64,000 nt of DNA from contig NJBO01000009.1 in assembly GCA_005223075.1 (NCBI GenBank), positions 1 to 64,000 on the forward strand, in the 5' to 3' direction. A program made the position numbers and the translations under genes. Source of the stretch: a candidate division TA06 bacterium B3_TA06. Its GTDB lineage: Bacteria > Hydrothermota > Tepidihabitantia > B3-TA06. This document shows positions 411 through 64,000 of the stretch, piece by piece. Each line of letters starts with the position of its first letter. Within the stretch, counting starts at the first letter, position 1. Under the pieces are notes generated by a model. The model was not told where the DNA came from and did not search any database. It worked only from the letters and a program-made list of their open reading frames with translations.

Positions 411-439
411 TTGACAGAGCACACAATTATCAATAGACT
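411..439 (+). promoter_or_regulatory. Promoter with the gene start at the predicted +1 (leaderless)
   Basis: TTGACA (411-416) and TAGACT (434-439) are 17 bp apart. The ATG at 445 lies 5 nt after the -10 box, which is where transcription should begin, and there is no Shine-Dalgarno between them. Confidence 0.7.
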
Positions 440-444
440 GCATC

Positions 445-1230
445 ATGAAACGTGCAACAATACTTCCCCCATTATTATCTCTCTTGATCTTCTCGGCGTG
501 CGGAGACAAGGGCAAGGCAGAGTCCCCGAAGTTTGTCTCCGACGGGGAGATGATAGAGATTCTTACACCTGCGAAGGGTGATACCTTCTCGTGGACTCTG
601 GTAACAGGTAAAGCAAGCCTCGCACAAGGGATGTTCCCCATTGAGCTTCACGGCGAGAATGCAGAAGTGCTCGATAGACGCAGTGTGATCCTTGCGGGCA
701 AGGCGCCGGATACCTTTGAGTTCGCGATGGGCATTCCGGTTAAAGAAGACGCCGCTCCACAGAAGGCACGCATAAGGGCATACTCGCAGGCCGCAGCGCA
801 GGCCGGTTCTCTGGATGCCGCGATTGTCTTCTGCTACATTATTCCAGGTTCAGGTGCGGCCCACGGAACCATCCTGCGCTACTACACCGCCTTGGACACC
901 AACGACTTCAAAGCGGCCTACGACCTTCTGGTAGCCGAAGGCCAGGCTTATCCCAATCTCTACGGCGGCGAAGCTACCTTCTCCCCGCGTCCCAAATTCA
1001 AGACCTTCAAGACCTGGAAGAAGAAAGCAGAGCACCTGCGAGTTCTGAGCCTGCGTCCGGAGACGATGTACGATCTTCCCACCGAGGGACTCTTCTGCTA
1101 CCGCGCAAAGGTCGAACATAAGGTAGGCGAAGAGGTCACTGTCGAGGATACATACGTCTTCCTCAAACGCCAGCCCGACGGCTTCTTCAAGATTTACCGT
1201 CCACGGAAGGACCCGCACAAAGCAGACTAG
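445..1230 (+). CDS. Lipoprotein with Gmad2-like domain
   Basis: This 261-residue protein has a lipoprotein-type signal peptide ending ...LLIFSAC, with Cys19 as the likely lipidated residue, so it is probably anchored in the cell envelope. Residues about 36-135 match the pattern of the Gmad2 immunoglobulin-like domain (a Pro-Ala-Gly opening, a VTGKA strand, and a Phe-rich central strand). The C-terminal half, from about residue 140, begins with a short helix (ILRYYTALDTNDFKAAYDLL) like the opening of NTF2/DUF4878-type folds. No catalytic residues are evident and the role is unknown. The start codon follows a promoter directly, with no ribosome binding site, so the mRNA is probably leaderless. 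It stands alone, 79 bp before a propeller gene on the same strand. Confidence 0.75.
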   Translation: MKRATILPPLLSLLIFSACGDKGKAESPKFVSDGEMIEILTPAKGDTFSWTLVTGKASLAQGMFPIELHGENAEVLDRRSVILAGKAPDTFEFAMGIPVKEDAAPQKARIRAYSQAAAQAGSLDAAIVFCYIIPGSGAAHGTILRYYTALDTNDFKAAYDLLVAEGQAYPNLYGGEATFSPRPKFKTFKTWKKKAEHLRVLSLRPETMYDLPTEGLFCYRAKVEHKVGEEVTVEDTYVFLKRQPDGFFKIYRPRKDPHKAD

Positions 1231-1309
1231 CAAGTCACTCTGCCCGTATTAGGGAATATTTCGTTACTTAGGGGGTAGGAGAGGATATAGAGAGCATAAA
1301 GGAGGCGTA

Positions 1310-2824
1310 ATGACCCGTAACACCCCCCGTAACACCCGTAACACATCACCTGCGTCCCGCGTGATGCGACGTAAGTTCTTGATAGTGCTTCTACCGCTGG
1401 TGCTAATTGCACTCGTGGGTTCTGAGACGGATGATCCCCTGACGCCGGAGTCGGGCGAGATGCAGGTTATTGAACCGGTTCCACAGGTTGCCTCTGGAGC
1501 AGGGGATCTTATCGGCGATGGAATGGAGAGCCTGGAGCGAAATCCCGAACTTGATGTGAAGACGTTTACCGCAAAGGACGGCCGCAAGGGCTGGAAGGTG
1601 AAGCTCGAGCGCTCACTCCCGTTGCCTACCCCGGCTGTGGTTGACGGCAGGGTCTATGTGGGCGGTGGCTTCGGCTCATACGAGTTCTACGCCCTTGATG
1701 CCTCCTCGGGCAAGCCTTTGTGGCTCTTTCACTGCGCAGACGACGGCCCGACCGCCGCGGTGGTCTCAAAGGGATATGTGGCGTTCAATACGGAAAGCTG
1801 CATACTCTACGTTCTCGACGCGAAAACAGGCAAGAAGATATGGGGGCGCTGGCTTGGCGATCCGTTGATGAGCCAGCCAGCGATTGCGGAGGAACGTGTG
1901 GTGATGGCCTATCCTGATCAGCGCGGCGGTCATTCCCTTGCCTGTATGGGACTTCGCGACGGTAGCCAATACTGGACTCAGTCCATCCCCGGCGAGGTGA
2001 TCACGGCCCCGGTCATCGCCGAGGGCAAGGTCTACGCGACCACCCTTGAAGGTTCGGTTCACTGCTTTGATCTTTCCACCGGTAAGAAGATCTTCTCCAA
2101 AGAACATCAGGCCACCTCAGCACCCTGGGTATGGCGCGGCGAGATATACGTGAGCCTTAGGGAGGACTCCGAGCGCGTCGTGGGCGGCGAGAGTAAAACG
2201 GTGCGCACCGAGGGCCAGGGACGTCTGACCAAGGCAGGTCTGCGTGACAACAAGACCCTCTGGGCCAAGCAGGAGGCAGAGTATCTTAACGTTGAGAGCG
2301 GTTCCAGATATGCATCCGAACAGGCAGCACTTGACGCCTCGGTGGGATTTACCTCGGCTCCATCGGCTGCCAAGCTCGCTCAGAGCGAGGCCAACCTGGG
2401 CATCGCCTCAGTGTCAGGTGTGTGGGCCTACCAGGGGTCAAGACCCACGTTAATCCACGGCGTCTCCTATTCCTCGATGGGCGATACCCTGAAGGCGCTT
2501 GAGGCTGAGTCCGGTAAGGTTATCTGGACAAGTTACATCCAGATCAAGGACTCCCCTGGCGGAAGGCCCTTTTCCCCACCTTCCTATGCTGCTGGAAAGC
2601 TCTATATAGGAGCGGTCTCAGGTGAGATCATCTGTCTTGACGCTGAAACCGGCCACGAGCTCTGGCGTTATGCCTGCGGCGAGCCGATACGCTTTCAGCC
2701 TGCGATAGCCGAAGGCAGCATCTACTGGGGAACCGACTATGGCAGTCTCTTCTGTCTAGACGCAAAGGACCGCAATGCTCACGGCTGGCTGATGTGGGGT
2801 GGCAACGCGCAGCATAATTTTTAA
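1310..2824 (+). CDS. PQQ-type beta-propeller protein (BamB-like repeats)
   Basis: The protein has 504 residues and a hydrophobic N-terminal segment at about 20-38 that should act as a signal or anchor. The rest is a series of propeller blades with the PQQ-like signature, a Tyr/Leu-Asp-Ala-x-(S/T)-Gly-Lys turn followed by a tryptophan, seen about six times (for example ALDASSGKPLW, VLDAKTGKKIW and CLDAETGHELW). Such proteins are usually structural or binding modules of the periplasm. The ATG at 1310 has GGAGG at 1301-1305. The first 18 residues are an odd Thr/Arg/Asn-rich run written by a tandem DNA repeat, and the signal peptide proper starts at Met19. The ligand is unknown. Confidence 0.8.
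   Translation: MTRNTPRNTRNTSPASRVMRRKFLIVLLPLVLIALVGSETDDPLTPESGEMQVIEPVPQVASGAGDLIGDGMESLERNPELDVKTFTAKDGRKGWKVKLERSLPLPTPAVVDGRVYVGGGFGSYEFYALDASSGKPLWLFHCADDGPTAAVVSKGYVAFNTESCILYVLDAKTGKKIWGRWLGDPLMSQPAIAEERVVMAYPDQRGGHSLACMGLRDGSQYWTQSIPGEVITAPVIAEGKVYATTLEGSVHCFDLSTGKKIFSKEHQATSAPWVWRGEIYVSLREDSERVVGGESKTVRTEGQGRLTKAGLRDNKTLWAKQEAEYLNVESGSRYASEQAALDASVGFTSAPSAAKLAQSEANLGIASVSGVWAYQGSRPTLIHGVSYSSMGDTLKALEAESGKVIWTSYIQIKDSPGGRPFSPPSYAAGKLYIGAVSGEIICLDAETGHELWRYACGEPIRFQPAIAEGSIYWGTDYGSLFCLDAKDRNAHGWLMWGGNAQHNF
1314..1344 (+). repeat. Three copies of CCCGTAACAC inside the start of a gene
   Basis: CCCGTAACAC occurs at 1314-1323, 1326-1335 and 1335-1344, immediately after the ATG of the propeller gene. 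The same word forms an 11-bp inverted repeat at 54101-54132 downstream of obg, so it appears to be a dispersed genomic motif. Confidence 0.75.
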
Positions 2825-2897
2825 AGTCTCACTCCTCGGGGAAAGGATCAGAGATAGCAATCTGTACGGGCCAGGTTAGACGCCCAGTGGGTATGTT

Positions 2898-11832: not shown

Positions 11833-11860
11833 TTGACAAACCAGCCTGGGGCGTTAAAGT
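11833..11860 (+). promoter_or_regulatory. Promoter of the lipid A operon, leaderless layout
   Basis: TTGACA (11833-11838) and TAAAGT (11855-11860) are 16 bp apart. The ATG at 11868 is 7 nt beyond the -10 box, at the expected transcription start, and no ribosome site fits between. Confidence 0.6.
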
Positions 11861-11867
11861 TCAAGCT

Positions 11868-12839
11868 ATGGGGAATAAAACTTTAGCTATAGCCATCGTG
11901 GTGCTTTCAGCGCTCTGTTGTGTATGGGCGCAGGATAAGATCGCCTTTGTAGATTCAGACAAGATCCTTACCGAGTTTGAGGACGCAAAGATCGCACGCG
12001 CCACCCTGAACCAGTCAGTGCTTCAGTGGACATTCGAACTGGATTCACTTAAGCGGGCTTATCAGACCGCGGAGGATGAGTTCAAGGCACAGCAGCCCAT
12101 GCTTTCTGAAGAGGCGCTGCGCGCCAGGCAACAGGAACTTACAGCCATGCGGCACCAGCTCGAGACGTTTGGGCAGGATATATGGGGCAAGGACGGCAAG
12201 GTAGACCAGAAGCACCGCGAGATTTTTGCCACGGTGATCGACAGGATAAACACGGTGATTGAAGAGATAGCTCAACAGAAGGGGATCTCGATCGTGCTTG
12301 ACGTAGCCACAGGAAGCTTTCTTTACGCCGACGTCTCCCTGGATATCACCCCCGAGGTTATCGAGGAGCTGAACCGGGAATACGCAGCAATCGCCTCAAG
12401 CGCCAAGAAGAAGGTGGTGGTTTTCGGTATCGCCGCCTTGGATGAGAAGAGTCAGTCTGAGGAACTCGGCAAAAGGGTGCGCAGGGTGGTCCTTAAGGTT
12501 GTCTCACAGTTTGAGCAGGAGCTGAGGCTTGAGCTTCTTGCAGATCACGAGGTTGAGCCGATGCTTTTGCAATACGGCGGTTCGTTCGATCGTGAGCTGG
12601 AGGAGGCGACCGCATTGGAGATAGGCCGAAATCTGGATGCGGAGTTCGCCTATATGGGGACGGTCCAGCGGCAGGGTGGTGACATCGTGGTGACCTTAAA
12701 GCTTCTTAAGCCCAAGGAAGATGAGGTCTTCCCACCGGTTACCGATAGGATTTCCGAGAAGGAAGAGGCCCTGTTTGAGCCGAAGGTAAGCGGGCTTGCG
12801 GCCAAGCTTCAGGCCTATCTTATTGCCAGCAAAGAGTGA
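11868..12839 (+). CDS. Skp/OmpH-like periplasmic chaperone fused to a TolB-N/CsgG-like domain
   Basis: The 323-residue product begins with a clear signal peptide (MGNKTLAIAIVVLSALCCVWA). Residues about 22-165 are Skp-like: an opening KIAFVDSDKILTEF strand, a long charged coiled coil (about 45-125), then IAQQKGISIVLDVATGSFLYAD. Skp carries unfolded outer-membrane proteins across the periplasm. The gene stands directly before lpxD, as skp does in many Gram-negative genomes. Unusually a second domain of about 150 residues follows (KKVVVFGIAAL... and LDAEFAYMGTVQRQGGDIVVTL), resembling the alpha/beta fold of TolB-N, FlgO or CsgG proteins. The frame opens at 11814, but Met at 11868 begins the signal peptide and sits at the promoter's predicted +1, so I use it. 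Confidence 0.75.
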   Translation: MGNKTLAIAIVVLSALCCVWAQDKIAFVDSDKILTEFEDAKIARATLNQSVLQWTFELDSLKRAYQTAEDEFKAQQPMLSEEALRARQQELTAMRHQLETFGQDIWGKDGKVDQKHREIFATVIDRINTVIEEIAQQKGISIVLDVATGSFLYADVSLDITPEVIEELNREYAAIASSAKKKVVVFGIAALDEKSQSEELGKRVRRVVLKVVSQFEQELRLELLADHEVEPMLLQYGGSFDRELEEATALEIGRNLDAEFAYMGTVQRQGGDIVVTLKLLKPKEDEVFPPVTDRISEKEEALFEPKVSGLAAKLQAYLIASKE

Positions 12840-21158: not shown

Positions 21159-21512
21159 TTAAATAAGAGGAAGGCCTTTGGGAGTAGTCAAATCTGCGAT
21201 TAGATGGCTAACATAGCCGGCGCAGAAGGCTTTGATTAAAGAATTTCTAATGGTTAAAGTTCCCGTTCCACTTGTTAACAAGAGCAAGATACTGTGGAAG
21301 AACTTTCGGTGATTTGGATTAGTGGCGGGTTCGAGTATATCTGGAAGACGTGCCGATAGAAAGCCTACTAACCCACAACTAACCACCCACAAGATCAATG
21401 CAAGAAAATCGAGTTCTTTGTCGTTTTGATTATCAAGTTTTGTCAGATAATCAATAAAACCAACTGATGCTCCTACTATCGCTCCGATATACATGTGAGT
21501 TCTTCGTTTCAT
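21159..21512 (-). CDS. Small YdjM/DUF457-like membrane protein
   Basis: The 117-residue product has three or four hydrophobic segments and the motif set of YdjM-type membrane-bound metal hydrolase-like proteins: an early His (RRTHMYIGAIVGA), HRKFFHSILLL, and GYVSHLIADLTTPKGLPLI at the end. Members are thought to be inner-membrane hydrolases, but activity is poorly known. The frame opens at 21566, yet the Met at 21512 is the homologous start and lies exactly 6 nt after a near-perfect -10 box. It has no Shine-Dalgarno and is one of the clearest leaderless cases here. It converges on ffh. Confidence 0.7.
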   Translation of the reverse strand: MKRRTHMYIGAIVGASVGFIDYLTKLDNQNDKELDFLALILWVVSCGLVGFLSARLPDILEPATNPNHRKFFHSILLLLTSGTGTLTIRNSLIKAFCAGYVSHLIADLTTPKGLPLI

Positions 21513-21518
21513 AAGACA

Positions 21519-21547
21519 ATAATACTTCGGGAAACATTGGTTGTCAA
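21519..21547 (-). promoter_or_regulatory. Leaderless promoter of the YdjM-like gene
   Basis: On the minus strand TTGACA (21547-21542) and TATTAT (21524-21519) are 17 bp apart, and the ATG at 21512 follows 6 nt later. Confidence 0.75.
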
Positions 21548-22645: not shown

Positions 22646-24889
22646 ATGAAAAGATCCCTCGTAGTGGGCGTGATGGTGCTTGCGGGGATTGCCCTTTTTG
22701 CCGGTGAGACCTCCGGTCCGGCAGGCCGGATTCCACTGTGCAGAACTGAAGGTTCTTGCGTGTTCCATCTAACTATGCCCGAGTTTGAGATTATCCCGTT
22801 GGATAACGACGAGGTTCGGATAGGAATGCCAGGGGTAGGTTATCGGCAGTATCCAGGTCACCCTCGTCTGCCTATGCCTACATATACCTTTGCGCTTCCC
22901 CCTGGAAGTGAGGTTGTAAGCGTGGATGTTTCCGGGAACCGCTGCGAGTTGCCCGGGACCTATCTCGTGGAGGCTTCACTTCCGGCGCTACCGCTTGGAG
23001 CCACGAACACCACGCTAAACAACCTTCACATGCTTTACAAAGAGACACGCGCCCGCGTCTACTCTGGGGAAGAGAAGTTATCGGATCACCTGGGCGAAAT
23101 TCATGCTACAGGGGAGCGCCGCGAGTACTCGTTGGTCACCGTGGCAGTTTATCCATTCGCCTATGATCCGGTCTCTGGCAGCCTCTCCTTCGCCCGCGAC
23201 GTGACGGTCAGCATCCGCTACGCCCCGGTCTCTGAGGAGCACTCCGAGTTCATTGCCCGTTTCATCCGCAAGGGAACCCTTTATCCCGACGTGCCTCAAC
23301 ACATCTACAACAAGGACGAGGCTCGTGAGTGGTACCGTCCCTCGGAGCGCGTGCTTGCAAACCCGCGGATGCTTATCCTGACTACCGCCGCGCTCAAAGA
23401 TTCTACCAGCCTGTACCGCCAGTGGCGCAGGCACACCGGCTTCGAGGTCAGTGTGGCGACCGTGGAGGATATAGCGGGTTCTACCTCAGGGGTGGACTTG
23501 CCGCAAAAGATTCGCAACTGGCTGCGCGGGCACGCCGCCGACTACGACTACCTCCTCATCATAGGCCACCATGCGAATATCCCCATGCGGGTACTTGCCC
23601 CATTCAACAACGGCAACGCCGGCTGGTGGCCTGATTTAGCAGATATCCCCTCAGACATCTACTACGGTGATCTGTCCAAGCCTGATGAGGAGTCCTGGGA
23701 CCTTGACAACGATACCCTCTACTATGGAGAGGCCCTCTCCGCCGGTGGTTTTGAGGACCCTCAGGACGCCCCGGACCTCGAGATGGAACTTCATGTCGGT
23801 CGCATTAACTCCTCCCTTGCGACAACCGTCCCAGAGATCTTGGAACAGACCTGGCTATTCGAGTACGATAAAAACACAACCTATAAAGAGACCTCTGTCC
23901 TTGCCGGCGGTATCCTGTGGTATCCAAACCAGAACGGAAACGGCTTGGCAGGTTACGACGGCGCCCACTACATGGAATTTATCATGAACAACGGGATCAT
24001 CAAAGAATCGCCGGCCACCACCCTCTACGAGAAGGAAGGCAACGGGCCATCAATCTATAGCTGCGATATCAACTTCACCCAGAGCAATCTGAAGAACACC
24101 CTAGCCAACACCGACGCCGGTATATTCGTCGAAAACAACCATGGCTTCAAAAACGCCTTCTATCGCACCGTATGGGCCAGGGATGACGGCGATGGCATCC
24201 CCGAAGATGCCGAACTAGATGCGCCGGTCGGCCTTGCGAACACGGACGCCTTCCTTCTTAACACCGAAAAACCAAACGTGGCGTTCCTCCTCTCCTGCCT
24301 TAACGGATACCCTGAGGATGCAAACTCCCTGGCGCAAGCCCTGCTGAACTACTCAAGCGTCGCTGTAGTTGCCCATACGCGCTCCGCCCTGGGCAGATAT
24401 GGCTGGAGTGGCCCGGGCGACGGCGGCCAAAACGGTCTCTACTACTACGTGCTGAACAACTACCTTAAGAAAACCACCTACGATCACGTCCTGGGCGATG
24501 CCGTTGATGCCGGCAGGCTCCAATACTATAACGCAGAGTCCCGCGTAAGCAAGTACGTGAACTCTTACGGTCACACCCTTTACGGTGATCCTTCCCTGCG
24601 CCACTTTGGCCGAACAGGTATAGCTGAAACCCCGCCCGTGGTGTCCCTGACAGGCCTCGATGTAGACCTTGAGAATCAAATACACTTCAGCCTGGCTGCC
24701 GCAAGCAAGGTTTGCCTTGAGGTTTGGGACGTTGCCGGACGCAAGGTGCAGACACTATTCGAAGGCCACTCATCCGCTGGAACCCACACCATCAACTGGG
24801 ACGTCAGTGGACTCCCATCCGGCGCCTACTTCATCACCCTGAGAACCAAAGCGATCACCCGGACCGCCAAGGCTGTGGTTATTCAGTAG
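22646..24889 (+). CDS. Gingipain-like C25 cysteine peptidase with type IX-like sorting domain
   Basis: The 747-residue protein has a signal peptide (to about 19), a propeptide-like region to about 240, then the C25 peptidase core: LLIIGHH at 303-309, His499 in FVENNHG and Cys551 in VAFLLSCLNG, placed like the gingipain dyad. C25 enzymes are secreted endopeptidases. The last 80 residues are a beta-sandwich with EVWDVAGRKVQTL and SGLPSGAYFITLRT, the pattern of type IX secretion/FlgD-like sorting domains, so export to the surface is likely. A GGAGG site precedes the ATG. A paralogue follows after a terminator; the final 27 codons are identical in DNA to that copy. Confidence 0.85.
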   Translation: MKRSLVVGVMVLAGIALFAGETSGPAGRIPLCRTEGSCVFHLTMPEFEIIPLDNDEVRIGMPGVGYRQYPGHPRLPMPTYTFALPPGSEVVSVDVSGNRCELPGTYLVEASLPALPLGATNTTLNNLHMLYKETRARVYSGEEKLSDHLGEIHATGERREYSLVTVAVYPFAYDPVSGSLSFARDVTVSIRYAPVSEEHSEFIARFIRKGTLYPDVPQHIYNKDEAREWYRPSERVLANPRMLILTTAALKDSTSLYRQWRRHTGFEVSVATVEDIAGSTSGVDLPQKIRNWLRGHAADYDYLLIIGHHANIPMRVLAPFNNGNAGWWPDLADIPSDIYYGDLSKPDEESWDLDNDTLYYGEALSAGGFEDPQDAPDLEMELHVGRINSSLATTVPEILEQTWLFEYDKNTTYKETSVLAGGILWYPNQNGNGLAGYDGAHYMEFIMNNGIIKESPATTLYEKEGNGPSIYSCDINFTQSNLKNTLANTDAGIFVENNHGFKNAFYRTVWARDDGDGIPEDAELDAPVGLANTDAFLLNTEKPNVAFLLSCLNGYPEDANSLAQALLNYSSVAVVAHTRSALGRYGWSGPGDGGQNGLYYYVLNNYLKKTTYDHVLGDAVDAGRLQYYNAESRVSKYVNSYGHTLYGDPSLRHFGRTGIAETPPVVSLTGLDVDLENQIHFSLAAASKVCLEVWDVAGRKVQTLFEGHSSAGTHTINWDVSGLPSGAYFITLRTKAITRTAKAVVIQ

Positions 24890-24910
24890 AATCAAGAGAA
24901 CTGAATCTAA

Positions 24911-24941
24911 AGGCCGGGGGTTGACCTCGGCCTATTTTTTG
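24911..24941 (+). terminator. Terminator of the first C25 gene, overlapping the next promoter
   Basis: An 8-bp stem with one G-T pair (GGCCGGGG/CCTCGGCC, 24912-24919 and 24925-24932) is followed by TATTTTTT. The loop and 3' arm contain the TTGACC -35 box of the next gene. Confidence 0.85.
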
Positions 24942-24949
24942 TTTATAGT
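24921..24949 (+). promoter_or_regulatory. Promoter of the second C25 gene, inside the terminator
   Basis: TTGACC (24921-24926) and TATAGT (24944-24949) are 17 bp apart. The ATG at 24981 has a GGAGG site. Confidence 0.65.
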
Positions 24950-24980
24950 TAAGGTATAGAAACTAAACTGGGAGGTTCGA

Positions 24981-27306: not shown

Positions 27307-27334
27307 TTGACAAGCTCATCTCGGCGCTTAATCT
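27307..27334 (+). promoter_or_regulatory. Leaderless promoter of the receptor-like barrel gene
   Basis: TTGACA (27307-27312) and TAATCT (27329-27334) are 16 bp apart; the ATG at 27340 follows 5 nt later with no ribosome site. Confidence 0.65.
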
Positions 27335-27339
27335 AATCT

Positions 27340-29574
27340 ATGTTGTTGAGTTTAATCTTTCTAGGCTTTGTGACCTCCTCCACGCCAAACGACTCCTTAC
27401 CTGAGGTTAAGGCTTTAGATCACTGCCTCAAGCGATTAACTCATCTTACCTTGCTTGATCCCCAAACAAGGCTGCGCGCGGCGTGGTTTATACCGGAGTT
27501 CTCTGTTAAAAGAGAGAGTCTGGCAGTGGCCGGTAGCAGGCCGGGCGAGGTGCGCTTTCTGCTCGACGGCGTTCCCCTATGGGACCCGCAGACCGGTGAG
27601 AACACCGTCTGGCTTCCCAAGAGTCTTCCTGAAGAAGCCAGCTTGAGGAACGAGAAGGCAAGCCTTGCACCAGTTGTAGCCCTTGCCTCGAGAAAGATCC
27701 TGGAGGGCTGGCACGCACAACTGGAATCCACTAGCCCCTTCTTTCTTTCCCAAGAGCAACCCGAAGGTCATGCTGAGGTCTTTCTGAACGTCCCTGTGGG
27801 AAGCAAGCTGAGCCTTTCGTTTGACGGCGCCGCCGTGGTGTGGAACGAGCGTCCTGAAGCTAACCTTGAGTTGCCACATCGCGGCATCGCCGCCTACACC
27901 GGTGTTGCCTCGGCAACCCTTGTCCCATCCGAGGGTATGCTGGCTCGCGCGCGAGTGATTCGTTGTCAAACCCAACGTGACCGTTTCTCAAGCGAATGGG
28001 CGTTCAACCCCGCCTCAGCACCCTCGAGCTTCGCCAGAGTCAATCTGGTTATCTTAAACTACCTGTATCGCACCGAGATACTTGATCTGGAGATGGCACT
28101 TTCAGGATACAACAGCTTCCTCGCAGAGGGCGGCCGTAAAGAGGGCAACCTGTCGCTCTTTCGCCCGTTCGATGAACAGGATTCGGTAGAATCAGGGGCA
28201 GCACTGGACATCCGCAACCCGTTCGGGGTCAAGGGGATTTTTTTTTCACAAGGTTTCTACCCCGGGCTTATCGCGAGGAACTCAACGGCGAATCGCGCCC
28301 GGGCGGCAGTCGGAATATTCGCGGGAGAGATGAACGAAATCCGTGCCCGCTTCAGCTACACCAGCTTCAACCTGATTTCGGATATCACTAAATGGGACGG
28401 CGCCGAGGAACGCACCGCAAACTTCCAGAAGACGCCTCGTCTGGCAGGGCTGTACCTCGGTGACCGCATCCACCTGGATCGCTTCTGGATAGAGCCGGGG
28501 CTGGGGTTTGCATATCTGGGGATAGAGAACCCGGATACCAGCCAGGGAGGGGTTGAGATCCCCGAATATACAATCTCCCTTGCCCCGCGGATCGAAGCTC
28601 GCGCTTACCTGGGGGGAGTTCAGATACGAGCGGGTACGGACATGCCTGCCGCAATCCCTCCGTTTGCTGTCTTCTTCGACACAAAGGACGAGGCCCCCAT
28701 TGTTGATTCCCTCATCTTGATCCCCAAAATAGATCCAACACCAGAACGCGCGTGGCGAGCATGGTTCGAGGTGCAGAAAGGATGGGGGAAGAGCTGGACT
28801 ACCGGCATCTCGTTTTACTCAAGCCTGGGCTACAAGCTTCTTGCCGGAGGCCTGAATCCTACGGAGGAGCTTGGTGGGACCATCCAGACGGCAGGGGTTT
28901 TTTTAGATGGCAGGGCCTTAAGCCTCGGGGTGATGCCTTGGTTTGAATACAGCTCAGAGTGGTTGGCAATACGTGCCGTCTACCGTTTCGCGTCAGCTAA
29001 ATCAACAACCTCAGGGCCTATCAGGGACTACGAGCGTCTTCTGGCCGGGGATTCTCTCACGACCCGGATGCAGAGGATGCCTCTTGACTCGCGCCACAAG
29101 TTTACGCTTGAGGCCAACTTATCGACACCCGAAGAGATGCACTTTCTCTTAAGAGACTGGTTTCTTGAGCCTGGCTTAGCTTTAGCCTCTGGCTTCCCTG
29201 GTGAGGAGGGTGAGGAGGGAGAGGATGGAGAAATTCCCTGGTGGGCATGGTGCGAGGTCGCTGCGGGCAGGGTGATCTCTATTGGCGCCTTCAAAGCGGA
29301 GATCGGGGTCGAGCTTTTGAACCCATTTAACTGGAAAGACCCGGTGTTCGGTGAGTTACCAGCCCCTGTTCTTCCCACCGAAGAGGAGTTCCCGGATCGA
29401 GTTGTGCTGGGCGATGAGGATTATCATCCTTCACGCGATGCTAACCACGACGGGGTCGTAACCGCAACCGAGGAGGTAGCCGCATACCAACGGGCCAGGG
29501 CGTTCTACGACGCATACACCCCAAGCCCTCTGTCTGCCCGCAGCCTGGAGTTTAAAATCTCTGTAAGATTTTAA
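27340..29574 (+). CDS. TonB-receptor-like outer-membrane barrel
   Basis: The 744-residue protein has a short signal peptide (MLLSLIFLGFVTSSTP) and a plug-like segment, GEVRFLLDGVPLWDP at about 69-83, similar to the DGVP turn of TonB-dependent receptor plugs. The remainder consists of long amphipathic strands and the last residues (LEFKISVRF) end in Phe, the barrel insertion signal. An EF-hand-like loop DANHDGVVTATE lies near 709-720. A classical TonB box is not obvious. The ligand is unknown; its position among secreted peptidases suggests a role in uptake or export of their products or of the proteins themselves, but that is a guess. Confidence 0.65.
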   Translation: MLLSLIFLGFVTSSTPNDSLPEVKALDHCLKRLTHLTLLDPQTRLRAAWFIPEFSVKRESLAVAGSRPGEVRFLLDGVPLWDPQTGENTVWLPKSLPEEASLRNEKASLAPVVALASRKILEGWHAQLESTSPFFLSQEQPEGHAEVFLNVPVGSKLSLSFDGAAVVWNERPEANLELPHRGIAAYTGVASATLVPSEGMLARARVIRCQTQRDRFSSEWAFNPASAPSSFARVNLVILNYLYRTEILDLEMALSGYNSFLAEGGRKEGNLSLFRPFDEQDSVESGAALDIRNPFGVKGIFFSQGFYPGLIARNSTANRARAAVGIFAGEMNEIRARFSYTSFNLISDITKWDGAEERTANFQKTPRLAGLYLGDRIHLDRFWIEPGLGFAYLGIENPDTSQGGVEIPEYTISLAPRIEARAYLGGVQIRAGTDMPAAIPPFAVFFDTKDEAPIVDSLILIPKIDPTPERAWRAWFEVQKGWGKSWTTGISFYSSLGYKLLAGGLNPTEELGGTIQTAGVFLDGRALSLGVMPWFEYSSEWLAIRAVYRFASAKSTTSGPIRDYERLLAGDSLTTRMQRMPLDSRHKFTLEANLSTPEEMHFLLRDWFLEPGLALASGFPGEEGEEGEDGEIPWWAWCEVAAGRVISIGAFKAEIGVELLNPFNWKDPVFGELPAPVLPTEEEFPDRVVLGDEDYHPSRDANHDGVVTATEEVAAYQRARAFYDAYTPSPLSARSLEFKISVRF

Positions 29575-38676: not shown

Positions 38677-39951
38677 TCACTCACCAAAGGTTAAGATAAC
38701 GGCCACCAACCCCAAAGCAGATGCGGCTAGCCCAACCCAGTCTCGCACCTCATAAAGTGGCTTTCGGGGGACAAAGATCATCGCCCCTGGTTCAAGCTGC
38801 ATATCAGGATGCGCACGTCGGGTGCGTCCGTCCGGATATATAACACGGATTGCCCCTAGATTGGCTGACGAAGAGAAGCCGCCTGCATGCCCCAGGTACT
38901 GATTTAGGGTCAGGGCCTCGTTGTAGATGACCGGTCCGGGCTTGCGTAACTCGCCGGTCACATATACAAATTGTTCTGAGCGAGGCACGGTTACAATATC
39001 TCCATGCTCAAGCTGAGTGTTCTCTCCTTGCCCGGTGGCGAGGTATTCCTGCATATCAAAGAATATCCGCTCGTCTCCCCGCTGTATATAGCAGTGAGCC
39101 AGATCGCTTTGTGGAATAAGAACTGCACGACTTTCAAGGAAATCACACACCCCCTCGCCGGGCTCGAACTCCAGCCAGTGTTCGGCGTTGAACTGGCGAC
39201 GCAGTGTATCGGTAAGGAAAACCAGCTGGATGCCGGGCTCATCAACGGCCTCTTTGGCAAACACCGCACCCCGCAGGAGAACGAAGAGCTCCATCTTAGG
39301 GACATAGATGATATCTCCGTCTGAAAGAGGGGGATTGGCGTCCAACTCACCATCCTCACGATAACGACGAAGATTGACCCTTAAGGTGTCACCGGAGCGC
39401 CTGACCAGTGAGATGTTTGAGACCGATCCCATGGAGGTGATGCCTCCAGCCAGATCAATACCGTCCTCTACCCGCATAAAGGGGGTAACAAGATAACTAC
39501 CTGGCCACTGGACATCGCCAAGGACGTTTATCTTGCAAAGCCTTGCTCCAATCAGGACAAAGTCTATCTCGACAGGCCTGATGAAATCACGAAAGGCCTC
39601 AGCCACCTGCTTGCGAGCCTTCTTGACAGCAACGTCCACGACCTCCATATAACCCACGGCCTCAAGGTTAACAAGACTCACCTCTCCAAAGGTCTGTCCG
39701 AAGGTTGTCATCCGGCGGCTTGAAGGCAGCATAATTACAAGCTGCCCGGTAGGGGTAATCCGGGTAGGATAGCTGTAGGAAAAACTGCCCTTTACAATAA
39801 TCAGCAGACTGTCGCCGGCGTTAAGCACATAGTCATCTATGGAAACTGGCTGTTCAGGAACCCTCCCAAGCTCAACAGGTATCTGGCGGCCAAAGGACTC
39901 GCCGGAGACCTGACCAACCCCTGCAAGAAACCAAAACAATATCCCCATCAT
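38677..39951 (-). CDS. Polysaccharide export protein with SLBB domains (Wza-like)
   Basis: The 424-residue product starts with a signal-like segment, then a Poly_export domain (YVLNAGDSLLIIVKG at about 41-55), and about three SLBB-type segments (KINVLGDVQWPGSYLVTP, VYVTGELRKPGPVIYNEA and one between). SLBB proteins form the periplasmic and outer-membrane channel for polysaccharides. The C-terminus holds a hydrophobic helix. The ATG follows a perfect TATAAT by 5 nt, so the mRNA appears leaderless; a second ATG is 3 nt inside. It is the first gene of the Wzz/SLBB pair. Confidence 0.87.
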   Translation of the reverse strand: MMGILFWFLAGVGQVSGESFGRQIPVELGRVPEQPVSIDDYVLNAGDSLLIIVKGSFSYSYPTRITPTGQLVIMLPSSRRMTTFGQTFGEVSLVNLEAVGYMEVVDVAVKKARKQVAEAFRDFIRPVEIDFVLIGARLCKINVLGDVQWPGSYLVTPFMRVEDGIDLAGGITSMGSVSNISLVRRSGDTLRVNLRRYREDGELDANPPLSDGDIIYVPKMELFVLLRGAVFAKEAVDEPGIQLVFLTDTLRRQFNAEHWLEFEPGEGVCDFLESRAVLIPQSDLAHCYIQRGDERIFFDMQEYLATGQGENTQLEHGDIVTVPRSEQFVYVTGELRKPGPVIYNEALTLNQYLGHAGGFSSSANLGAIRVIYPDGRTRRAHPDMQLEPGAMIFVPRKPLYEVRDWVGLAASALGLVAVILTFGE

Positions 39952-39956
39952 GAGAG

Positions 39957-39984
39957 ATTATACCTAAATCCGAGCCTTGGTCAA
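39957..39984 (-). promoter_or_regulatory. Leaderless promoter of the polysaccharide export pair
   Basis: On the minus strand TTGACC (39984-39979) and TATAAT (39962-39957) are 16 bp apart; ATG codons follow 5 and 8 nt later. Confidence 0.75.
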
Positions 39985-47434: not shown

Positions 47435-49432
47435 TCAGTAGTTAATGCTCAACCCGGCGTAGAACCTTCTGGGAGCAGTTGGATAGTCGAGGTCGTTCAG
47501 CCCGCCGAAGTGTGCGGCGGTCTGATCGTTGGTAAGATTCTTCACACCGATCTTGACAGTAAGGAGATTAAACAGCTTCTGGGAGACGGTGGCATCGAGT
47601 TTCAGGGAAGGCCTTATGATCTTTTCGATCACCCCGATCTCAGGATAGGTCGAGTAGTCCGGGTAGTAGTTGATGCGCTCACCGGTCCATGCGACAGCGG
47701 TTTCGATCTTACCCCCCTGCCAGGCGTGGATTGCAACGTCTCCTTTCAGGATAAGCGGCGGGATGAACGCGGCCTGACGCTCGACCGTGTCCACCTCGGT
47801 CTCTGTGCCGCTGGAGTAGGTAAGGATAGTACGTGTTTCTGTGGCATGGTTGTAGGCAAGACCCAGGGAACCGGAGAAAAGACCTTCTGCCACTTGCCAG
47901 GATGAAGACAGCTCTCCGCCCCAGATCGTCACCCGATCCAGGTTCTCAGGCCGCCAGATACCACCCTCGAAAGGCAGCCAGGAGATCATATCCGTTATAT
48001 CCTTCCACGAGCCCGCAGCGCTTAACTTAAGGAACCGGAACGGCCTGGCATCAGCTGAGAGCACAAAACTCTGAGAGCGCTCAGGCACCAGATCGGGATT
48101 GCCTTGCGAGTACTCGTCTGCAGGCCAGAACAGGTCGTTCAGGGTGGGGGCACGGAACGATCGCCCGTAAGCCGCGGCTATCTTGAGCTTTTCCGGGATG
48201 GGAACCACGCTCAACCCCAACTCGGGTGAGAAGAAGCTCTCGTTACGGTCTGAAAGATCCAGTCGTGCCGCGGCGCTGGGGGTAAAGACACCCAGTTCGG
48301 CCAGTAGCTCGGTCCAGATGCCGAGGTGGGAATCGTCGGCGTCCCAGGAATAATCCCAGATGACGGTATCGGCTGCAGAGTCGGTATAGATACCTCTGAC
48401 CTGTAGCATCTCCTTCTCAATCGAGAGTCCGCCGGCAAGCCTGAACCGCCGGGCAAGCTGTGCCGAAAGCTGCAGATCACCGCCTAGCCGAAGGTCGTCG
48501 TATTGGTTGTTTACAAGTTCGGTATACGAACCTTCCCCCCACCGCCCTTGACGCGGCCAATCGTAGATAAAATCCTGGTTCACCGCGTATAGGTTCAGGT
48601 AGCCGGAGAAGGCTTGCTTTCCGAACGAGGTTTTCAGATTCCCGCGCATGAGCTTGTCGGCCTGGCGGTCGTAAAGGGAGTAAACCAGGGAATCGCCGAA
48701 GATCGGCGGCACGAAGGCGGTATCTGATGTGTCAGGTGCAGGTCCTGGCACACCCATCTGGCGCCAGGTATAGGCGGTGTTGAGTTCGATGTTGAATGCA
48801 TCGGTGGGAGCGATCCAGAATCCTACCCCCCCACTATACCGCATTACATCGTCGTTGTGCCGGAATCCAGGATTGGTAAGGTAGGAACCGGTAACACGTG
48901 CTCCCAGTATTCCCCAATTGATTGCTCCTCGTGCACTGGTGTTCATGCCCCACTGATCGGTGGCTGTAAAACGCGCAGCAAGCCCATCCTTCTTCGATGG
49001 AATAACGTTTACCACGCCTCCGATGGCTGCAGACCCGTAAAGCGCGGATAGGGGACCCTTAACGATCTCCACCCGGTCGCCAGGTGCCATAGGAATAAGG
49101 GAGAGATCTATCACCCCGTCGCGCCGGGAGTTCATGTGTACGCCGTTGTAAAGCACCAGTACTCTGGATGCCAGGATTCCACCCAGGATTGGAAAGGCGG
49201 AGTGTCCCTCATAACCGTATGATCGCACGTCTGCAGATACGCTTTGTGCAAGAACATCGGTGAGGTCGGTGACCTCGTCTTCTTCTACTACTAAGACCTC
49301 CACCGGCCATGGTGAGAGTTCGGCAGGAAGTGAGAGCCTGGTTGCGGTGACGATAACCTCGGGCATCTCGTAGACCGGCAGCTCGTCGGGCTGGGCAAAA
49401 AGCGCCAGACTGATAGCAAGGGCCTTGACCAT
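47435..49432 (-). CDS. btuB: TonB-dependent outer-membrane receptor, cobalamin type
   Basis: The 665-residue protein has a short signal peptide (MVKALAISLALFA), a TonB-box-like VIVTATR at 27-33, a plug domain (about 35-160 with VEIVKGPLSALYGSAAIGGVVNVI, quoted here in part) and a long barrel ending SINY. TonB receptors import metal-chelates and vitamins across the outer membrane using energy from TonB-ExbB-ExbD. The leader carries a cobalamin riboswitch, so vitamin B12 or a corrinoid is the likely cargo. The frame opens at 49534, inside the riboswitch, but the ATG at 49432 has a GGAGG site and begins the signal peptide, and I use it. Confidence 0.8.
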   Translation of the reverse strand: MVKALAISLALFAQPDELPVYEMPEVIVTATRLSLPAELSPWPVEVLVVEEDEVTDLTDVLAQSVSADVRSYGYEGHSAFPILGGILASRVLVLYNGVHMNSRRDGVIDLSLIPMAPGDRVEIVKGPLSALYGSAAIGGVVNVIPSKKDGLAARFTATDQWGMNTSARGAINWGILGARVTGSYLTNPGFRHNDDVMRYSGGVGFWIAPTDAFNIELNTAYTWRQMGVPGPAPDTSDTAFVPPIFGDSLVYSLYDRQADKLMRGNLKTSFGKQAFSGYLNLYAVNQDFIYDWPRQGRWGEGSYTELVNNQYDDLRLGGDLQLSAQLARRFRLAGGLSIEKEMLQVRGIYTDSAADTVIWDYSWDADDSHLGIWTELLAELGVFTPSAAARLDLSDRNESFFSPELGLSVVPIPEKLKIAAAYGRSFRAPTLNDLFWPADEYSQGNPDLVPERSQSFVLSADARPFRFLKLSAAGSWKDITDMISWLPFEGGIWRPENLDRVTIWGGELSSSWQVAEGLFSGSLGLAYNHATETRTILTYSSGTETEVDTVERQAAFIPPLILKGDVAIHAWQGGKIETAVAWTGERINYYPDYSTYPEIGVIEKIIRPSLKLDATVSQKLFNLLTVKIGVKNLTNDQTAAHFGGLNDLDYPTAPRRFYAGLSINY

Positions 49433-49499
49433 ATAAGCCTCCAAGTTGTGACCGTTAGGAAAACCACACGCCCATCCTGGCCCGGGATGCTCGTGCGGG

Positions 49500-49692
49500 G
49501 TCTTGGCGGATAGGTCTCCTGGCTTACGGATCATTCTTCGCCTCCAGCCTTCCCATCCTCAAGGCTTAAACCTCGATTTTAGGACAGTGGCTACGACTGT
49601 TGAAGTCGTTTCGGAGGCTCAGTCCCCGATCACAGTGGCGGCACCGCGGCCGATTCTCACGGCCTTCCCTGACTTCCGCCGTCTAGTCCAAA
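49500..49692 (-). promoter_or_regulatory. Cobalamin riboswitch
   Basis: Read on the minus strand, the leader has the conserved parts of the B12 riboswitch in order: GGGAAGGCCGTGAGAATCGG, the GCCGCCACTGTGA core, a GTAGCCACTG segment, GGATGGGAAGGCTGG, and the B12 box AAGCCAGGAGACC at 49513-49525. Flanking GGCGG/CCGCC can close the basal stem. B12 binding should switch off expression of the receptor gene downstream. The likely expression platform is the stretch between 49440 and 49500, which also includes the ribosome site. Confidence 0.9.
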
Positions 49693-49702
49693 TTGTTATG
49701 AA

Positions 49703-49803: not shown

Positions 49804-49831
49804 TTGACATCTTTCATTCTTTGACTATACT
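49804..49831 (+). promoter_or_regulatory. Promoter of the Fic gene
   Basis: TTGACA (49804-49809) and TATACT (49826-49831) are 16 bp apart, about 110 nt upstream of the gene; the untranslated leader is filled with the GGACAT iterons. Confidence 0.8.
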
Positions 49832-49965
49832 TTGGACATGGGTGTGGACACAAATCTAGACATTTTTAACAAAAATTGCTCATTAAGTCAAGTAAATAGG
49901 TGATTTCTTTGTGACATATCGTTGGACATCTTAGGAGACATTTATGAGGACATACGAGAGGACAC
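49822..49965 (+). promoter_or_regulatory. Two arrays of 12-bp GGACAT iterons at the Fic promoter and start
   Basis: Units of 12 bp that begin with a version of GGACAT stand at 49834, 49846 and 49858 (with a weak unit at 49822), and again at 49912, 49924, 49936, 49948 and 49960. Spacing is exactly 12 in both arrays. The first array begins at the -10 box and the second covers the ribosome site and start codon. This layout is what an autoregulatory operator would look like; the binder could be the winged-helix end of the Fic protein. Confidence 0.6.
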
Positions 49966-51472: not shown

Positions 51473-51500
51473 TTGACATACTCACCACCGAAGATAGAAT
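51473..51500 (+). promoter_or_regulatory. Promoter of the DUF3800 gene, near-leaderless
   Basis: TTGACA (51473-51478) and TAGAAT (51495-51500) are 16 bp apart; the ATG at 51509 is 8 nt past the -10 box, leaving a leader of at most a nucleotide or two. Confidence 0.7.
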
Positions 51501-51508
51501 AACAAACA

Positions 51509-52213
51509 ATGCCACATAGATTTACTTTTGAAGTCTATTGCGACGAAAGCCGTCAGGACCTTCTCAGCTCCCAGTCTCCTGGTCCCTATAGATATACATT
51601 AATTGGAGGCGTATGGCTACCCGCCCAAATGCGGCAAGAGATCAAGGAAAAGATATTAGCAATTAAAAGGGATTTCCGATTCAACCGAGAGATTAAATGG
51701 AAGGATGTAGCCCCGTCGAGTTTGCCTTTCTTCGAGGACCTTATCGATCTTTTCTTCGCCAAGGGGGAAGAATTTGGCTTCAGGTGTATAGTTGTTGACA
51801 GCACCAAATTCGACTTAAAAAGATTCCATGAAGAGGATGCCGAGCTTGGTTTTTATAAGCTCTACTACCAATTGCTCAAAAACGGATTCCATCCTGGATT
51901 TGCCTACAGGGTTTTTTTAGATTACAAGATTAACAGGCTTCCCAGCAGGGTTAAAGTCTTGGAGAAAGTTCTAAAGAACGCATGTCCTGAGGTTGAATCC
52001 ATTGAGCTTCAGGCCCTTCCTTCGGCAGAGGTCGTATTGATTCAACTGGCCGATGTTCTTCTGGGAGCTACCGGATACAAGCTGCACCTTCTCAAAACGA
52101 GCAGAGCAAAGTTAGCTATCGTTGAACGAATAGAGCGCCATCTGGGGCGTGAGATAAAACCTACGAGCCGAGAAGAAAAGAAGTTCAACGTCTTCAAAAT
52201 CCGGTTACGGTGA
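51509..52213 (+). CDS. DUF3800 family protein
   Basis: The 234-residue protein begins FEVYCDESRQ, the acidic opening (Asp12, Glu13, Ser14) of DUF3800, an RNase H-like fold, followed by YTLIGGVWLP, a KWKDV segment, a conserved VFLDYK strand and VLIQLADVLLGATGYKL near the C-terminus. DUF3800 proteins are common in mobile and defence-associated neighbourhoods and are thought to be nucleases, but no reaction is established. It has its own promoter and is followed 6 bp later by a second small gene. Confidence 0.72.
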   Translation: MPHRFTFEVYCDESRQDLLSSQSPGPYRYTLIGGVWLPAQMRQEIKEKILAIKRDFRFNREIKWKDVAPSSLPFFEDLIDLFFAKGEEFGFRCIVVDSTKFDLKRFHEEDAELGFYKLYYQLLKNGFHPGFAYRVFLDYKINRLPSRVKVLEKVLKNACPEVESIELQALPSAEVVLIQLADVLLGATGYKLHLLKTSRAKLAIVERIERHLGREIKPTSREEKKFNVFKIRLR

Positions 52214-54178: not shown

Positions 54179-55138
54179 TCACTTGTTGATAGTTTCGGTT
54201 AAGCGTTTGCGAACCTCGGCCAACCCCTGCTTCTTTAGGGCCGAGATATACGACACACCCTTCTCGTCGGGGATAGAAGGTTTCTCTTTAACCAGATCCA
54301 TCTTATTAACCACGATCAGCCGCGGGCGCTCGGCAAGCTCCGGGTTGTAGGCTGCAAGTTCTGCAAGAAGCGTCTGATAGGCCACTGCCGGATTCTCGTC
54401 TGCGGCAAGGACAAACACCAAAAGCCTCGTGCGCTCGATGTGACGCAGGAAGCGCAGGCCCAGCCCCTTGCCCTGGGCCGCACCCTCGATTATCCCTGGG
54501 ATATCGGAGATGGTAGCCGAGAGCCATTCGTCACGCAGCACGCCCAGATTGGGTGAAAGGGTGGTGAAGGGGTAGGATGCGATTTTGGGTTCGGCATGGG
54601 TGAGTGCTTTAAGGAGTGTGGATTTGCCAGCGTTGGGCAGACCGATAATCCCAACGTCTGCAAGGAGGCGAAGAACGAGCTTGAGTTTGCGCCTCTCGCC
54701 CGGTTTTCCTTCCTCATGCTCGCGCGGGGCCTGGTGGGTAGGTGTTGCGAAACGCGCGTTGCCTCGACCGCCTCGTCCGCCGCGAGCCACAAGAAGACGC
54801 TGGCTATCTTCCAGGACCGAGCCCAGGAGTTCACCCGAGTCTTCATCGTAGGCGTCGGTACCCAGGGGAACTTTGATCTCGGCATCCTTACCCTTGGCGC
54901 CGTGCATGTTCTTGCCCTTACCGTTGCCGCCCTTGCCAGCGCGGTAGGAGACGTGGTAGGCAAGATCGGCAAGCGTGGCCAGATGCAGGTTCCCAACGAG
55001 ATAGATAGATCCACCGTCGCCTCCGTCCCCGCCGTCAGGCCCGCCTTTGGGAACAAACTTCTCGCGGCGAAAGCTCACGCAGCCTCGCCCGCCTGAACCT
55101 GCAGCCACCCGGATCGTTACCTCGTCTACAAAACGCAC
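54179..55138 (-). CDS. obg: Obg/CgtA GTPase
   Basis: Obg is an essential GTPase of ribosome maturation and stress response. The 319-residue protein has the glycine-rich Obg fold (VAAGSGGRGCVSFRREKFVP and GGDGGDGG near 40) followed by the G domain with GLPNAGKSTLL, the DIPGIIEGA switch and NKMD. It ends at TETINK shortly after the G domain, without the C-terminal OCT domain. The frame opens at 55171, but Obg proteins begin near FVDEVTIRV, so I use the GTG at 55138. A TATAAA at 55146-55151 stands 7 nt upstream of it, so this start may also be leaderless. Confidence 0.92.
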   Translation of the reverse strand: MRFVDEVTIRVAAGSGGRGCVSFRREKFVPKGGPDGGDGGDGGSIYLVGNLHLATLADLAYHVSYRAGKGGNGKGKNMHGAKGKDAEIKVPLGTDAYDEDSGELLGSVLEDSQRLLVARGGRGGRGNARFATPTHQAPREHEEGKPGERRKLKLVLRLLADVGIIGLPNAGKSTLLKALTHAEPKIASYPFTTLSPNLGVLRDEWLSATISDIPGIIEGAAQGKGLGLRFLRHIERTRLLVFVLAADENPAVAYQTLLAELAAYNPELAERPRLIVVNKMDLVKEKPSIPDEKGVSYISALKKQGLAEVRKRLTETINK

Positions 55139-55599
55139 ATCATACTTTATACATTGTGCGGGAAAAATCAAGACCTCAACCTACCGTCCCAAAAGAGGAC
55201 GAAATGTCCATTGTCAAGACATCATTGTAGATAGTCCAATACATCGTTACCAGGTAGCAAGAGGTTGAGAACTGCCACGCTTGAGCTTGTCTGTTCAAAC
55301 CCGAAAAAGAGACAGAGTGTCTGCGCTACATTGTAGGCTAGATAGTGTTCAATGATCAAAAGCCTTGCTTCGAGGGCATTCATGACGTATGATCTCTTGT
55401 AGTTAATCTGCATAGACGGTGGATCTGTTTGGTTAATTCCTTTTTTGTAAGTCTAAAGGAGCTCTCCGCTTTTCCTAATAACACCCTTGCTCGCATACCC
55501 CAACCCGGGCAACTATCTACCCGCGCACGAACTCGCTTGCCTTGACAAGAGCCAGACCCATCCTATAATTCTCTACTAATCAGCCGTTTAGGAGGATCG
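55139..55599. other. Divergent gap upstream of obg
   Basis: It holds the obg start region and the promoter at 55542-55569. A 53-residue minus-strand ORF (55222-55380, beginning MNALEARLLIIEHYLA) looks fairly protein-like but has no recognisable relative and no firm ribosome site; I do not call it a gene. Confidence 0.4.
55542..55569 (+). promoter_or_regulatory. Promoter of the LolA-like gene
   Basis: TTGACA (55542-55547) and TATAAT (55564-55569) are 16 bp apart, both perfect boxes, about 30 nt before an AGGAGG site and the ATG. Confidence 0.85.
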
Positions 55600-63523: not shown

Positions 63524-63598
63524 ATTAAACGTAGTGCGAGACTTCAGTTTCGCGGCGAAGCCTATCACCCGAAGGGGGTGCGCTGAAGCCCAAATGAA

Positions 63599-63690
63599 CG
63601 TAGGGGCGTACCTTTAGGTGCGCCCGGAAAACTATTACGCGGGCCGACTTACGCGTAGCGGCGTCTAATCGCCAAAAGTCGGCCCCTACG
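63599..63690. repeat. Two adjacent GTAGGGGC-family repeats, one split by 25 bp
   Basis: The first (63599-63632) equals the copy at 63323. The second (63639-63690) has arms GCGGGCCGACTT and AAGTCGGCCCCTACG, separated by about 25 bp that lie where other copies have only a few bases. Confidence 0.65.
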
Positions 63691-63746
63691 AACTTGATGC
63701 ACTCATAGGGTAGAGGATAAAGGTGGGGGTGGTGATTTGGTTTCAC

Positions 63747-63835
63747 CCTCCCCTTTCTCCCCTCCCATCAAGGGAGGGGAAATGGCTTCCCACTTAATCC
63801 CCCTCCCTGTGTGGAGGGGGTGTAGGGGGAGGGGA
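63747..63835. repeat. CCCCTCC palindromic repeats
   Basis: Two inverted C-rich/G-rich units (CTCCCCTCCCATCAAGGGAG and CCCCCTCCCTGTGTGGAGGG), just upstream of the final promoter. Confidence 0.65.
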
Positions 63836-63842
63836 GAATAAC

Positions 63843-63871
63843 TTGACTTAAACCTTAAGCTCTCATACAAT
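63843..63871 (+). promoter_or_regulatory. Leaderless promoter of the last gene
   Basis: TTGACT (63843-63848) and TACAAT (63866-63871) are 17 bp apart; the ATG at 63877 is 5 nt past the -10 box and there is no ribosome site. Confidence 0.65.
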
Positions 63872-63876
63872 CCCCT

Positions 63877-64000
63877 ATGGCGAAGAGAAAAACCCAACCC
63901 CTGCCCGACCCGAAGGTAGGGAATAAATGTAAGGTAGCAAATTGTAACATCCTACCCCTTTTTAATGAAGATTACTGCGGGATGCATCTCCCTTCCAAAC
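63877..64000 (+). CDS. N-terminal part of a small Cys-rich protein (cut by window edge)
   Basis: The 41 codons in the window read MAKRKTQPLPDPKVGNKCKV and then ANCNILPLFNEDYCGMHLPSK. Cysteines in the order C-x4-C-x10-C-x2-H look like a zinc-binding knuckle. A basic start and the finger suggest a nucleic-acid- or metal-binding protein, but the rest is outside the window. The start codon lies directly downstream of a promoter in the leaderless arrangement. Confidence 0.45.
   Translation, partial: MAKRKTQPLPDPKVGNKCKVANCNILPLFNEDYCGMHLPSK

What the first reader, a model, noticed from the sequence alone, without database searches (positions are those of the whole stretch)
411..63879. Frequent leaderless genes with sigma70-type promoters
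Seen: in at least seven genes (445, 11868, 21512 minus, 27340, 39951 minus, 51509, 63877) a TTGAC(A/C/T) box, a 16-17 bp spacer and a TATAAT-like box end 5-8 nt before the start codon, with no Shine-Dalgarno. Known: transcription starts about 7 nt after the -10 box, so these ATGs would be at or within two bases of the 5' end. Inference: leaderless initiation is normal here, side by side with genes that have GGAGG sites. The genes involved are mostly envelope, chaperone or accessory genes. That is a useful rule for choosing starts in this lineage.
Basis: partly seen in the sequence, partly recalled or inferred. Interest (0 to 1): 0.7.

Follow-up and report, generated by a model that had tools for sequence, protein, structure and literature searches.

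The report
Leaderless genes common in Stahlbacteria lineage
In this uncultured bacterium (a Candidatus Stahlbacteria / WOR-3 relative) roughly one gene in six appears to be read from an mRNA that begins right at the start codon, with no ribosome-binding leader; this known but minority way of starting protein synthesis had not, in the papers I could search, been described for this group.

Summary
Confirmed and largely explained. All seven promoters exist as described. The pattern TTGAC-N17..19-TAnnnT-N5..8-ATG occurs 9 times in the window (8 distinct promoters) against 0.15 expected, and not at all when the ATG is 12-15 nt away. In 864 kb of the same 2.41 Mb genome, in-frame starts peak sharply 5-6 nt (tail to 8) after the -10 box: 78 in-frame against 3 out of frame. 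About 15% of genes (91/616) and a quarter to a third of detected sigma70 promoters are of this type. These starts lack Shine-Dalgarno (SD) sites (1% against 73% for leadered genes), and the same genes have no excess of SD-led starts downstream. E. coli shows no such peak. Orthologues keep the spacing: a polysaccharide-export gene throughout the class down to 31% identity, and GlmS, whose start is fixed by its catalytic Cys, in 19 of 30 class genomes (SD-led in some others). So leaderless initiation is real here by sequence criteria; mRNA 5' ends remain unmeasured. Not supported: that these are mostly envelope/chaperone/accessory genes; they include GlmS, four tRNA synthetases, NadE, RecJ and Obg. 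Known phenomenon, new lineage. Unexpected: another family of the phylum uses a different leaderless promoter, without a -35 box, for about half of its first genes.

The parts
411..1230 (+). Leaderless unit: -35 TTGACA 411-416, 17 nt, -10 TAGACT 434-439, 5 nt, ATG 445; ORF 445-1230 (Gmad2 domain)
11833..12839 (+). Leaderless unit: -35 TTGACA 11833-11838, 16 nt, -10 TAAAGT 11855-11860, 7 nt, ATG 11868; OmpH/Skp-like periplasmic chaperone; same layout in the 7 other genomes of the family
21159..21547 (-). Leaderless unit: -35 TTGACA 21547-21542, 17 nt, -10 TATTAT 21524-21519, 6 nt, ATG 21512; YdjM family, whose Pfam profile aligns from residue 1 of this start
27307..29574 (+). Leaderless unit: -35 TTGACA 27307-27312, 16 nt, -10 TAATCT 27329-27334, 5 nt, ATG 27340; 744-aa protein without Pfam match; spacing kept in two relatives (75% and 60% identity)
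38677..39984 (-). Leaderless unit: -35 TTGACC 39984-39979, 16 nt, -10 TATAAT 39962-39957, 5 nt, ATG 39951; SLBB-domain (polysaccharide-export type) protein; leaderless layout in 33 of 35 homologous loci examined (some genomes are represented twice)
51473..52213 (+). Leaderless unit: -35 TTGACA 51473-51478, 16 nt, -10 TAGAAT 51495-51500, 8 nt, ATG 51509; DUF3800
54179..55171 (-).
63843..64000 (+). Leaderless unit cut by the window end: -35 TTGACT 63843-63848, 17 nt, -10 TACAAT 63866-63871, 5 nt, ATG 63877
49804..49903 (+). Candidate only: TTGACA-16-TATACT-6-ATG opening a 21-codon ORF (49838-49903) upstream of the SD-led Fic-domain gene 49944; leader peptide or chance ATG

Best explanation
In this lineage a large minority of genes (about 15% of all genes in the sample; about 26-31% of detected sigma70 promoters) carry a TTGAC(A)-16/17-TAnnnT promoter placed so that the start codon A/GTG lies 5-8 nt after the -10 box, where RNA polymerase normally begins transcription. 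The mRNA should therefore start at, or within about two bases of, the start codon and be translated by leaderless initiation (5'-terminal AUG/GUG recognition, by analogy with Mycobacterium and Deinococcus). The remaining genes use SD-led initiation with an intact anti-SD. Shown here: promoter layout, genome-wide spacing peak, frame dependence, lack of SD, conservation and orthologue switching. Inferred: the exact mRNA 5' end and the ribosomal mechanism.
For: Spacing: 78 in-frame against 3 out-of-frame starts at 5-8 nt (binomial p about 2e-33). Without a gene model or weight matrix: of 398 TTGAC-N17..19-TAnnnT sites, 104 are followed at 5-8 nt by ATG/GTG opening an ORF of at least 100 codons, against 10 at 12-15 nt. 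Whole genome, ATG at 5-6 nt: 254, against 38 at 12-13 nt and 1 for the reversed pattern. SD of at least 5 nt: 1% at leaderless starts, 73% for leadered genes, 54% for operon-internal genes; starts downstream in the same leaderless genes 11%, internal decoys 9%. Start codons 62 ATG, 15 GTG, 1 TTG, the ATG/GTG rule shown for mycobacterial leaderless mRNAs (PMC4633059). GlmS must begin Met-Cys; it does, with the promoter 5 or 8 nt upstream, and 19 of 30 class genomes (own included) have a promoter 5-8 nt away. The SLBB gene keeps 5-8 nt down to 31% identity. Controls: E. coli 0 in-frame sites at 5-8 nt; D. deserti P1, an accepted leaderless organism, peaks at 6 nt. The 16S anti-SD is intact.
Against: No transcript 5' ends were available. 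Genes were called with a simple codon-usage script, on 36% of the genome. A start 8 nt after the -10 box could leave a leader of 1-2 nt. Some genes (34 of 91) have a same-strand gene upstream and could also be reached by read-through transcription.
Confidence: 0.93

Rival explanations
1. The promoters are real but the true translation starts are SD-led codons further downstream; the ATG next to the -10 is incidental.
For: Gene-finding pipelines often disagree on starts, and some of these ORFs have further in-frame ATGs (e.g. ATGATG at 39951).
Against: The start codon is in frame in 78 of 81 cases; downstream in-frame starts show no SD excess over internal decoys (11% against 9%); GlmS Met-Cys fixes the start; family profiles of SerRS, ProRS, peptide deformylase and Obg align from within a few residues of these starts.
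Confidence: 0.03
2. The transcripts carry very short leaders (1-3 nt) or have variable start sites, so initiation is short-leader rather than strictly leaderless.
For: The gap varies from 5 to 8 nt, while the usual -10 to +1 gap is 6 +/- 1 (established knowledge).
Against: The peak is at 5-6 nt with few at 3-4 or 9, as expected if transcription starts on the A/G of the codon; D. deserti peaks at 6 nt.
Confidence: 0.25
3. Chance: AT-rich promoter-like strings near ATGs.
For: TAnnnT and ATG are common strings.
Against: 0.15 expected against 9 in the window; 254 against 1 for the reversed pattern genome-wide; frame and distance dependence; none in E. coli.
Confidence: 0.005

Closest known systems
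Leaderless genes of Deinococcus-Thermus (D. radiodurans, D. deserti; -10 motif about 6-7 bp before the ORF; PMC12340547)
   Same: TAnnnT abutting the start codon, no SD, side by side with SD-led genes; same spacing peak in D. deserti P1 with my own pipeline
   Different: Here a near-invariant TTGAC -35 with a preferred 16-nt spacer accompanies the -10 box; in the D. deserti sample only 2 of 13 -10 sites had even a loose -35. Fraction about 15% of genes here, about 30% of ORFs or more there.
Leaderless genes of Mycobacterium and other Actinobacteria (PMC4633059, PMC3160421)
   Same: Start codons ATG or GTG and practically no TTG; similar proportion of genes (about 20-25%, PMC9031893)
   Different: Unrelated lineage; strong -35 elements here; mRNA ends and ribosome profiles are measured there, not here
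TA-led genes predicted in 207 of 953 bacterial genomes (Zheng et al. 2011, PMC3160421) and the leaderless genome groups of GeneMarkS-2 (cited in PMC9581028)
   Same: Same kind of sequence evidence: a Pribnow-like signal about 10 bp upstream of starts
   Different: WOR-3/Stahlbacteria is not in the group list given there; no held paper mentions leaderless together with Stahlbacteria or WOR-3

Membership tests
Leaderless genes (bacterial) | -10 box placed about 5-8 nt before the start codon, in excess of chance | tested here: met
Leaderless genes (bacterial) | No SD site at these starts, although SD-led genes exist in the genome | tested here: met
   1% against 73%; anti-SD intact
Leaderless genes (bacterial) | The codon next to the promoter is the true start of the protein | tested here: met
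   frame bias; GlmS Met-Cys in the class; N-terminal profile coverage
Leaderless genes (bacterial) | Start codon ATG or GTG, not TTG | tested here: met
   62/15/1 against 186/23/15 at SD starts; difference alone p = 0.08
Leaderless genes (bacterial) | mRNA 5' end at the start codon | not testable with these tools
   no RNA data
Leaderless genes (bacterial) | Initiation by 70S ribosomes, resistance to kasugamycin | not testable with these tools
   needs in vitro or in vivo translation
SD-led genes (rival filing) | SD 5-10 nt upstream of the start | tested here: not met
   for the 91 leaderless candidates

The most novel reading that the evidence does not exclude
Within one bacterial phylum, leaderless initiation is served by two different promoter architectures: TTGAC-16-TATAAT abutting the start in the window's class, and a -35-less C..CC(G/T)TA(G/A/T)AAT box 6-9 nt before the start in family f23, where it serves about half or more of all first genes, often as back-to-back promoters in intergenic gaps of 44-90 nt. 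Other families of the phylum show little of either. Initiation mode would then have been rewired repeatedly through promoter change, gene by gene (GlmS and OmpH switch between leaderless and SD-led).
Probability: 0.7. Interest if true: 0.6.

Novelty: new member of a known kind. Interest (0 to 1): 0.45.

Why it matters
It adds an uncultured phylum to the short list of bacterial groups with abundant predicted leaderless mRNAs. It gives a concrete rule for choosing gene starts in its genomes (prefer an ATG/GTG 5-8 nt after TTGAC-16/17-TAnnnT, even without SD). It also offers a phylum in which orthologues switch between SD-led and leaderless initiation, so that the evolution of initiation mode can be followed gene by gene.

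Tried and rejected
(1) The idea that families f17-f27 lack leaderless genes, drawn from the TTGAC-dependent counts, was too simple: family f23 has very many, with a promoter that this pattern cannot see; the other families sampled among f17-f27 do show little of either pattern. (2) The claim that leaderless genes are mostly envelope/chaperone/accessory: rejected. (3) SD-led starts downstream: rejected. (6) 20-kb samples of f34, f17, f18, f22 and f26 were too small or too AT-rich to judge alone.

Full report
What the window is. The window is contig 9, bases 1-64000, of a 2.41 Mb, 42-contig genome estimated 95.8% complete. Its SMC-type protein is 96% identical to one of a Candidatus Stahlbacteria genome, and the other close matches are labelled Stahlbacteria or candidate division WOR-3. 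GC is about 53%.

The observation. All seven promoter/start arrangements are present exactly as described. TTGAC-N17..19-TAnnnT-N5..8-ATG occurs 9 times (8 promoters) against 0.15 expected in shuffles and never with the ATG at 12-15 nt. An ATG at 49838, 6 nt after a good promoter, opens only a 21-codon ORF upstream of a Fic gene. The 17 other promoters found in the window lie further upstream of starts, 16 of them with an SD of at least 5 nt.

Genome-wide test. I took 800 kb of further stretches and called genes with a codon-usage script. For promoters with at least 5/6 of TTGACA, a 16-18 nt spacer and at least 4/6 of TATAAT, the distance from the -10 box to start codons has one sharp peak: 29, 31, 9 and 9 in-frame starts at 5, 6, 7 and 8 nt, against 3 out-of-frame starts in all four bins. 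The frame dependence shows that these codons are used for translation. A test without gene calls or weight matrix agrees: of 398 TTGAC/TAnnnT sites, 104 have ATG/GTG opening an ORF of at least 100 codons at 5-8 nt, against 10 at 12-15 nt. In the whole genome the ATG-at-5-6-nt pattern occurs 254 times, the ATG-at-12-13-nt control 38 times, the reversed pattern once. With a weight matrix, 91 of 616 genes are leaderless-type, with 9 and 2 in the two decoy frames.

Features of the class. The -35 box is TTGAC in all 78 training sites, although one mismatch anywhere was allowed; the spacer is 16 in 65 and 17 in 13; starts are 62 ATG, 15 GTG, 1 TTG; the bases between -10 and start show no purine-rich box. 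The 16-nt spacer is a property of the lineage, since leadered promoters prefer it too (138 of 200). SD matches of at least 5 nt occur at 1% of leaderless starts, 73% of leadered genes and 54% of operon-internal genes; further downstream in the leaderless genes the rate is 11%, about equal to internal decoys at 9%. The 16S rRNA keeps its CCTCC anti-SD. Both initiation modes therefore coexist.

Start codons checked independently. GlmS needs a catalytic cysteine directly after the initiator Met (established knowledge of Ntn amidotransferases), so its start is fixed. Here it is ATG-TGC with TTGACA and TATTAT 5 or 8 nt upstream. Among 30 class genomes, 19 show a promoter with its -10 box 5-8 nt before the Met-Cys start; others have no such promoter and some have a clear SD (e.g. 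AGGAGGAGCG-ATG in L229). The SLBB gene at 39951 keeps the layout in 33 of 35 loci down to 31% identity. OmpH keeps it in its family (43-100% identity), while more distant orthologues often show GGAGG. For SerRS, ProRS, peptide deformylase and Obg the family profile begins within a few residues of the leaderless start.

Controls. With the same script E. coli has no in-frame -35/-10 site at 5-8 nt, and D. deserti plasmid P1, an accepted leaderless organism, peaks at 6 nt using the -10 box alone.

Which genes. Leaderless genes include GlmS, NadC, NadE, RecJ, Met-, Pro-, Cys- and Ser-tRNA synthetases, alanine racemase, peptide deformylase, ThyX and Obg. Their proteins have fewer hydrophobic N-termini than SD-led proteins (23% against 42%, p = 0.0009).

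Breadth. In 147 genomes assigned to the same phylum, the 5-6 nt to 12-13 nt ratio is high throughout the window's class (family means 2.5 to 9.3), intermediate in several other families, and near 1 in f17, f20, f22, f23 and f34 (family means for f5 and f10 are over part of their genomes). The low value for f23 is misleading. With the -10 box alone, f23 stretches show a strong in-frame peak at 6-9 nt with a C..CC(G/T)TA.AAT motif and no -35: 40 of 65 first genes against 3 and 4 in decoy frames, no SD at these starts, and 11 divergent leaderless pairs, several with 44-90 nt between starts. Genome-wide, TAGAAT-N6..9-ATG against N14..17 is 219/24 in G040, 227/25 in G043, 206/18 in G041 and 209/17 in G042, and close to 1 in most of the other low families tested.

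Literature. Predicted or mapped leaderless genes are known from Actinobacteria, Deinococcus-Thermus and scattered genomes of other groups (PMC3160421, PMC12340547, PMC4633059, PMC9031893, PMC9581028). No held paper contains 'leaderless' with 'Stahlbacteria' or 'WOR-3'; subscription papers were not searchable, so this is not proof of novelty.

Verdict. Observation confirmed; interpretation supported by independent lines of sequence evidence; transcript ends remain to be measured. A known mechanism in a lineage for which I found no report, with a useful annotation rule and, in passing, a second and more extreme leaderless promoter type in the same phylum.

Noticed in passing
L148-L157 (G040, G043; family f23 of the same phylum): About half or more of first genes start 6-9 nt after a C..CC(G/T)TA(G/A/T)AAT box with no TTGACA -35 and no SD; divergent gene pairs share gaps of 44-90 nt with back-to-back boxes. 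Confirmed by whole-genome pattern counts in seven f23 genomes.
   Followed up: partly
L206-L235 (glmS loci): GlmS, with a start fixed by Met-Cys, switches between leaderless and SD-led within one class. In six loci (L218, L222, L224, L227, L230, L233) it has neither a promoter nor a strong SD but broadly similar CT-rich upstream DNA: a third arrangement, unexplained.
   Followed up: partly
window 49804-49903: Good promoter with an ATG 6 nt downstream opening a 21-codon ORF ahead of the SD-led Fic gene 49944; possible leaderless leader peptide.
   Followed up: no
promoters of SLBB genes, e.g. window 39957-39984 and L116-L137: A GATTT-like string recurs in the spacer just before the -10 box in distant orthologues; possible regulator site.
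   Followed up: no
own genome: The preferred -35/-10 spacer in this lineage is 16 nt rather than the usual 17, for leadered and leaderless promoters alike.
   Followed up: partly
window 49491-49698 (-): Cobalamin riboswitch (Rfam RF00174, 75.8 bits) ahead of the TonB-dependent receptor gene 47435-49534.
   Followed up: no
window 22646-27227: Two adjacent C25 (gingipain-type) peptidase genes, one with a Por secretion C-terminal sorting domain, next to the leaderless gene 27340.
   Followed up: no
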